Assembly (NCBI RefSeq): GCF_000284255.1
Contig: NC_017075.1
Span: 4,526,001-4,590,000, forward strand
DNA from: Rubrivivax gelatinosus IL144
GTDB taxonomy: Bacteria; Pseudomonadota; Gammaproteobacteria; Burkholderiales; Burkholderiaceae_C
Length of the DNA: 64,000 nt
Reading direction: 5' to 3'
The first letter of the stretch is position 1, and each line of letters begins with the position of its first letter. Shown in pieces: positions 61,403-61,847 of the stretch. The position numbers were made by a program, and so were the translations under genes. The notes under the pieces were generated by a model that saw only the letters and a list, made by a program, of their open reading frames with translations, searched no databases and was not told the origin of the DNA.

Positions 61403-61479
61403 CGGGATCTCCGCAATGGAAGGTGGCGAACGGGAAGCACCGGCGGCGCCTTCGCCAGACACCGCATCACCCAACGGAC

Positions 61480-61495
61480 AGCAACACCCGTACCA
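61480..61495 (-). promoter_or_regulatory. Sigma-54 promoter of the draT operon (leftward)
   Basis: Minus strand TGGTACGGGTGTTGCT: all defined -24/-12 consensus positions match except one (T for C in GGC). Transcription would begin near 61469, about 67 bases before the first start codon. Confidence 0.75.
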
Positions 61496-61579
61496 CGCCG
61501 ATTCGGGCCCGGTTTCGTCGTGAACCTCACGCACCGGGCCGTCATTGCGGCGTGCGCGATCGGCCCGGGCTTCCGGCTT

Positions 61580-61595
61580 TGTCGTGTTTCGGACA
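61580..61595. promoter_or_regulatory. NifA upstream activator site shared by two promoters
   Basis: TGT-N10-ACA exact match, palindromic, 80 bp before the nifH -24 element and 84 bp from the divergent draT-operon promoter. The remainder of the 61403-61847 region holds no gene. Confidence 0.8.
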
Positions 61596-61675
61596 TTCGA
61601 CACCGGCCGCCCCGAGAGCCTGGCATTTGCCATTTTTCCTTTGCAAGACAGGCACTTAGCAAAAGAAACGCGGGT

Positions 61676-61691
61676 TGGCACGGCGGTTGCG
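61676..61691 (+). promoter_or_regulatory. Sigma-54 promoter of nifHD
   Basis: TGGCACGGCGGTTGCG, a perfect match to TGGCACGNNNNTTGC. The start of transcription would be near 61702, leaving a 5' leader of about 145 bases before the nifH ATG. Confidence 0.9.
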
Positions 61692-61847
61692 ACGCGCTGC
61701 TGGCGCTGAATGCCCGACCCGACCCGAAGGCACCTCCTAGAAGAAAACCCAGCAGTCGATGGCGGCAAGGAATTCGCGAACAGGCTTTCGTGGCCACTCG
61801 TTGATTCGTCTCGACCCCAAGCTCAACTACCTAACGGAGTTCAACCC

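What the first reader, a model, noticed from the sequence alone, without database searches (positions are those of the whole stretch)
61403..61847. One NifA site between two divergent sigma-54 promoters couples nifH to the draT operon
A TGT-N10-ACA site at 61580-61595 lies 80 bp from a rightward -24/-12 promoter (61676-61691, nifHD) and 84 bp from a leftward one (61480-61495, unknown gene-draT-draG). In better-studied draT systems the draTG genes are often transcribed without NifA. Here synthesis of the nitrogenase reductase and of its inactivating enzymes would share one activator, giving a built-in brake.
Basis: partly seen in the sequence, partly recalled or inferred. Interest (0 to 1): 0.75.

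Follow-up and report, generated by a model that had tools for sequence, protein, structure and literature searches.

The report
Two-way promoter for nitrogenase and DraT
One short stretch of DNA in a nitrogen-fixing purple bacterium carries two back-to-back start signals that look as if a single activator site serves both, so the genes for a nitrogenase part and for the enzymes that turn it off and on again are probably switched on together; the layout is conserved in related bacteria and extends known biology rather than breaking with it.

Summary
It is not chance: the combined pattern occurs three times in the 5.04-Mb genome, twice here, and the leftward promoter is the longest invariant run (21 nt) in four Rubrivivax spacers. 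The layout recurs in 60 of 62 loci where the unknown gene X faces nifH.

Best reading: NifA and sigma-54 drive nifH and X in opposite directions. X, 197 residues with no recognised domain, is the conserved target; draT-draG follow X in only 18 of the 62 loci and look like passengers joined or lost several times. In 32 other loci where draT faces nifH without X, none has a draT-facing promoter clearly beyond the site, though 19 of them come from one class. Some lineages reach NifA coupling by other routes.

"Built-in brake" is partly right: draG, which reverses DraT, is co-encoded. NifA sites before draTG were already predicted in Alphaproteobacteria (PMC4999443). No expression or binding data were available. 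New variant of a known kind.

The parts
61580..61595 (.). NifA-type upstream activator site TGT-N10-ACA, shared by both promoters
   Evidence: 15 of 16 columns invariant in 4 Rubrivivax; a shared site in 60 of 62 X-nifH loci, 50 as TGT-N10-ACA and 10 as TGT-N10-ACG
61676..61691 (+). sigma-54 -24/-12 promoter of nifH, TGGCACGGCGGTTGCG
   Evidence: 15 of 16 columns invariant
61480..61495 (-). sigma-54 -24/-12 promoter of X-draT-draG-draB, TGGTACGGGTGTTGCT
   Evidence: 16 of 16 columns invariant inside a 21-nt invariant run 61478-61498; shuffle p 0.001
60809..61402 (-). gene X, 197 aa, unknown function, first gene of the leftward run
   Evidence: no Pfam or NCBIfam match at E 0.01; 1962 homologues; model pLDDT 91
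59967..60797 (-). draT (GTG start), NifH ADP-ribosyltransferase
   Evidence: PF07357 E 6e-100, profile positions 1-255 of 256
59036..59974 (-). draG, ADP-ribosyl-dinitrogenase reductase hydrolase; overlaps draT by 8 nt
   Evidence: TIGR02662 395.5 bits, cut-off 337.05
58599..59021 (-). draB/nifO-like gene (nitrogenase-associated, ArsC-like), 14 nt after draG
   Evidence: TIGR01616 143.5 bits, cut-off 109 (scanned from 59024); ATG start
58348..58593 (-). small zinc-ribbon protein, possible last gene of the operon
   Evidence: PF09723
61848..62729 (+). nifH; arginine of GCAGRG at residue 102 (Met = 1)
   Evidence: TIGR01287 464.6 bits, cut-off 394.35
62797..63999 (+). nifD by my reading of its product, runs off the window
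   Evidence: open frame; no family search made

Best explanation
NifA bound at 61580-61595 serves two sigma-54 RNA polymerase holoenzymes, one on each side, by DNA looping: rightward at nifH, leftward at the gene run X-draT-draG-draB. Under nitrogen-fixing conditions nitrogenase reductase and its two-way ADP-ribosylation switch would be made together, with X co-made first. The primary conserved partner of nifH is X; draTG were placed behind X in some lineages and so came under NifA. Shown: the elements, their conservation, gene order, NifA and RpoN genes in the genome. Inferred: NifA binding, looping to both sides, co-transcription of X through draB, physiological role.
For: Exact elements at normal spacing. 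Only 3 genome-wide matches to the combined pattern, 2 of them here, control 0. One NifA over the cut-off and two RpoN. 60 of 62 X-nifH loci have a nifH -24/-12, a shared site and an X-facing -24/-12 scoring 13-15 of 16. In four Rubrivivax the X promoter is the longest invariant run. Where no nifH lies on the held DNA, X keeps a -24/-12 in 11 of 11 loci with enough upstream sequence, 6 of them also with the site at 67-92 bp. In L044, with about 2.4 kb between nifH and X, each side has its own site and promoter. draT follows X on the same strand in 19 of 19 loci, and in L180. Site-to-X-promoter distances lean to about 10.5-bp steps, weakly after clustering.
Against: No expression, binding or start-site data. 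In 10 of the 60 loci the site is TGT-N10-ACG; 5 Cupriavidus loci have the X promoter but no site by my pattern; L057 fails (its leftward match scores 12 and its site has a mismatch). Helical phasing falls to p 0.011 at 10.5 bp for 27 clusters, with the best period 8.9-9.3. A NifA-independent promoter inside X cannot be excluded (the sigma-70-type scan found none, but such scans are weak). One X-draT genome (that of L025) holds a second draT without a TGT-N10-ACA in the 1.5 kb before it, so NifA need not control every DraT.
Confidence: 0.82

Rival explanations
1. Only nifH and X are meaningfully NifA-driven; draT-draG have their own low constitutive promoter inside X and stay expressed with ammonium, as described for DraG of R. 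rubrum.
For: R. rubrum DraG is called constitutively expressed (PMC6067124 passage). In 32 draT-nifH pairs without X, draT has no draT-facing -24/-12 clearly beyond the site, so draT can live without sigma-54.
Against: An 11-nt gap X-draT leaves no room for a promoter between them; no sigma-70-like site and no terminator-like site in 58200-62000. An internal promoter would add to NifA control, not remove it.
Confidence: 0.13
2. The site works on nifH only, and the leftward -24/-12 is used by another sigma-54 activator such as NtrC.
For: The genome has 10 further matches below the NifA cut-off; one-sided use is possible in principle; 5 Cupriavidus loci show the X promoter without a recognisable site.
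Against: The X promoter keeps a TGT-N10-ACA at 67-92 bp where nifH is not on the held DNA (6 of 11 loci) or is moved away (L044); co-occurrence in 60 of 62.
Confidence: 0.05
3. Chance: the leftward -24/-12 is a fortuitous match.
For: Short motifs recur by chance.
Against: as above.
Confidence: 0.01

Closest known systems
NifA sites predicted upstream of draTG in Magnetospirillum and Rhodospirillum (PMC4999443)
   Same: A candidate NifA site in front of draTG, so NifA control of the switch enzymes was already proposed (passage read).
   Different: Alphaproteobacteria; the passage names the binding site only and no gene X. Of my 5 loci from the class of G163 (presumably Alphaproteobacteria), two have a strong draT-facing -24/-12, two a weak or distant one, one none.
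Rhodospirillum rubrum / Azospirillum draTGB
   Same: draT-draG-draB together (PMC5249018 and PMC6067124 passages); in Azospirillum draTG lie upstream of nifH (PMC3169532 passage).
   Different: DraG in R. rubrum is called constitutively expressed; there draT is the first gene (recalled), here X is.
Direct draT-nifH divergent pairs without X (32 loci here, not among the class-of-G163 hits)
   Same: draT faces nifH, mostly across a short spacer with one NifA-type site.
   Different: The site sits at the draT start (-13 to +40 nt of the codon-1 equivalent in 27 of 32, three of these by a one-mismatch site) and no draT-facing -24/-12 scoring 13 or more lies 30 bp or more beyond it in 32 of 32. 19 of 32 are from the class of Magnetococcus marinus.
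nifH-X divergent unit without draT (Paraburkholderia, Cupriavidus, Pseudacidovorax, Methyloversatilis and others)
   Same: Same site and same two promoters.
   Different: No draT behind X; often a truncated-haemoglobin gene between promoter and X.

Membership tests
NifA-activated sigma-54 promoter | TGT-N10-ACA upstream activator site | tested here: met
   61580-61595
NifA-activated sigma-54 promoter | -24/-12 element with GG and GC at the standard spacing, both directions | tested here: met
   TGGCACGGCGGTTGCG and TGGTACGGGTGTTGCT
NifA-activated sigma-54 promoter | site about 80-150 bp from the promoter (range recalled) | tested here: met
   80 and 84 bp
NifA-activated sigma-54 promoter | genome encodes NifA and sigma-54 | tested here: met
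   TIGR01817 669 bits, cut-off 528.85; two TIGR02395 matches over the cut-off
NifA-activated sigma-54 promoter | transcription lost without nifA or rpoN | not testable with these tools
   needs mutants
DraT-DraG nitrogenase switch | DraT ADP-ribosyltransferase | tested here: met
   PF07357
DraT-DraG nitrogenase switch | DraG hydrolase | tested here: met
   TIGR02662 over the cut-off
DraT-DraG nitrogenase switch | NifH with the modifiable arginine in GCAGRG (motif recalled) | tested here: met
   residue 102 counting Met
DraT-DraG nitrogenase switch | PII and AmtB partners that set enzyme activity | not tested
   not searched in this genome
Known fold for X | significant structural match in the PDB | tested here: inconclusive

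The most novel reading that the evidence does not exclude
X is an unrecognised nitrogenase accessory or regulatory protein, possibly of a new fold, that has been nifH's divergent partner across many Betaproteobacteria; its NifA promoter is a docking place on which draTG landed or were lost several times, turning a constitutive switch into one made only with nitrogenase.
Probability: 0.4. Interest if true: 0.6.

Novelty: new variant of a known kind. Interest (0 to 1): 0.42.

Why it matters
It suggests that the nitrogenase on/off switch is wired differently in different lineages: NifA-driven through X in a set of Betaproteobacteria, apparently without a sigma-54 promoter of its own in the direct draT-nifH pairs examined. 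That matters for strains in which draT is removed or nifA altered to raise nitrogen fixation or hydrogen output, and it points to X, a conserved NifA-regulon candidate with no known function.

Tried and rejected

Rows dropped: of 72 X loci, 12 have no nifH on the held DNA and were treated apart (L063 had too little upstream DNA, so 11). Of 29 of 398 genomes with draT one is the window's own and one (G165, partial hit) was not fetched; of the 27 stretches fetched L132 is X-type and L124, L138, L140, L143 have no nifH on the held DNA, as has the Rhodobacter plasmid locus L154. Of 18 new genomes, 5 have no divergent nifH. L069 was dropped from the tree.

Full report
What is there. The window lies in a single-contig 5.04-Mb genome close to Rubrivivax gelatinosus: the protein of gene X is 99% identical to that of strain DSM 1709. 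The spacer 61403-61847 separates nifH (61848-62729, +) from X (60809-61402, -), followed by draT, draG, a TIGR01616 draB/nifO-like gene and a small zinc-ribbon gene. The three elements have the stated letters and positions. The consensus forms TGT-N10-ACA and TGGCACG-N4-TTGCW are recalled, not taken from a call; -24/-12 scores below are out of 16 on a simple weighting of that consensus.

Chance. In the window TGT-N10-ACA occurs three times: here, before nifB (49763-49778, with TGGCACGGCTCTCGC at 49834), and once inside an open reading frame with a SIR2-like domain (56458). The genome-wide search for the combined pattern returns three places and its control none: this spacer read in both directions, and one upstream of a stretch that includes a 2Fe-2S ferredoxin gene. 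All three elements together never arose in 20,000 shuffles of the spacer. NifA (one match over the cut-off, about 24 kb beyond the window's end) and two RpoN genes are present.

Conservation. X was found in 72 loci (almost all from organisms named as Betaproteobacteria, some MAGs named only to class or phylum). In 60 of 62 a nifH -24/-12, one shared site and an X-facing -24/-12 scoring 13-15 are present; the site is TGT-N10-ACA in 50 and TGT-N10-ACG in 10. The exceptions are L044, where about 2.4 kb separate the two sides and each has its own site and promoter, and L057. Of the 12 loci with no nifH on the held DNA, 11 have enough upstream sequence: 11 of 11 keep an X promoter and 6 of these keep a site; the 5 without one are Cupriavidus. 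Among four Rubrivivax spacers 46 of 48 element columns are invariant against 100 of 241 other columns of 61403-61691, and the longest invariant run (21 nt) holds the X promoter. The distances from the site to the X promoter bunch near 83, 92, 103 and 113 bp: R = 0.59 at a 10.5-bp period over 48 configurations, falling to R = 0.41, p = 0.011, with best period 8.9-9.3, over 27 clusters. I treat this as a hint.

Where draT sits. draT follows X on the same strand in 19 of 19 loci that hold both, and in L180 found later. 18 of the 19 are among the 62, of which 17 are complete and the 18th is L044; the 19th, L038, has no nifH on its DNA but keeps site and promoter. In the remaining 44 of the 62 there is no draT behind X. 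On a tree of 73 X proteins the fewest gains or losses of the X-draT link is five (5-6 over bootstrap trees; well-supported branches force four). Of 16 genomes without draT behind X that I searched, 12 gave no draT and 4 gave one elsewhere; the four X-draT genomes sent along were all found (several are incomplete drafts, so absence is not firm). In three of those four (L156-L158) draT again faces nifH, but behind another gene (receiver domain PF00072, tested in L157 only; the L156 and L158 counterparts look alike by eye) with its own -24/-12 scoring 13-14; in the fourth (L155) neither site nor promoter was found within 1.5 kb. The genome of L025 also holds a second draT (L160) with no site in the 1.5 kb before it.

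Contrast with direct pairs. The first sample of draT loci facing nifH without X has 26 members. Five are from the class of G163, which I take to be Alphaproteobacteria from the names of L150's closest named relatives. Of the other 21, 19 lie in the class of Magnetococcus marinus, one (L122) in the window's order and one (L118) is unplaced. A second, independent sample from the window's own class (19 of 369 genomes with draT, one of them the window's) added 11 direct pairs from 9 families. In 0 of these 32 does a draT-facing -24/-12 scoring 13 or more lie 30 bp or more beyond the site on the draT side; L125 has one abutting the site (3 bp), and L119, L125 and L127 have one on the nifH side of it. 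In 27 of 32 the site lies within -13 to +40 nt of the draT codon-1 equivalent (17 of 21, three by a one-mismatch site; 10 of 11), leaving no room for looping to a promoter beyond it. The nifH promoters of the same loci score 12-16, so the test can see such elements. Of the 5 loci in the class of G163, two share a strong draT-facing promoter, two have weak or distant ones and one has none. The second sample also gave one more X-type locus (L180, promoter score 14), one locus without X (L183, score 14, 152 bp from its site), and 5 loci with no divergent nifH and neither site nor promoter in the upstream DNA scanned.

Mechanism. NifA bound at one site most likely activates both promoters by looping. 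The co-product is not a brake alone: DraT inactivates NifH and DraG restores it, both set by PII proteins in studied species (PMC6490700 passages). What the sequence supports is that the switch enzymes are made when nitrogenase is made. This differs from R. rubrum, whose DraG is described as constitutively expressed (PMC6067124 passage, citing a 1982 paper I did not see).

Prior work. PMC4999443 (passages) reports candidate NifA sites upstream of draTG in Magnetospirillum and Rhodospirillum, so the idea of NifA control is not new. Other passages seen: PMC7341956, PMC4204347, PMC8777916, PMC2820453, PMC3916325 (no draT in it), PMC3169532, PMC6192227, PMC5249018, PMC3023670; PMC6925177 and PMC9769520 gave reference-list matches only (32, 34) and PMC12316311 no match (42). 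In the held library, searches listed no paper that I recognised as describing a shared nifH-draT site in Betaproteobacteria; PMC2681912, on Azoarcus DraT/DraG, is not held and could contain one.

Gene X. 1962 homologues pass E 1e-3; none of the 120 listed shows a Pfam domain, and where a source gives a name it is hypothetical or uncharacterized. The predicted fold is confident (pLDDT 91, pTM 0.88) with no convincing PDB match. As the steady partner of nifH it may be the more interesting gene.

Noticed in passing
window 60809-61402: Gene X: conserved nif-linked family with no known domain and a confidently predicted fold without a convincing PDB match.
   Followed up: partly
window 61703-61847: The nifH mRNA leader is 118 of 145 columns invariant in four Rubrivivax, well above the rest of the spacer; possible RNA element.
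   Followed up: no
window 61596-61606: An 11-nt stretch right after the NifA-type site is fully invariant in four Rubrivivax; the site may be longer than TGT-N10-ACA.
   Followed up: no
window 49763-49848: TGT-N10-ACA and a weaker -24/-12 (TGGCACGGCTCTCGC) 55 bp apart in front of nifB.
   Followed up: partly
L028:3518-3934 and 36 other loci: A truncated-haemoglobin gene (PF01152, tested in L028) lies beside X, between promoter and X in 33 of 37 loci and after X in 4; not found at this spot in Rubrivivax.
   Followed up: partly
L156, L157, L158: A receiver-domain-like protein takes X's place between the nifH site and draTG, while X sits elsewhere in those genomes.
   Followed up: partly
L044:1434-3047: A Crp/Fnr-like regulator (by eye) and one more ORF lie between nifH and X; each side has its own NifA-type site.
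   Followed up: partly
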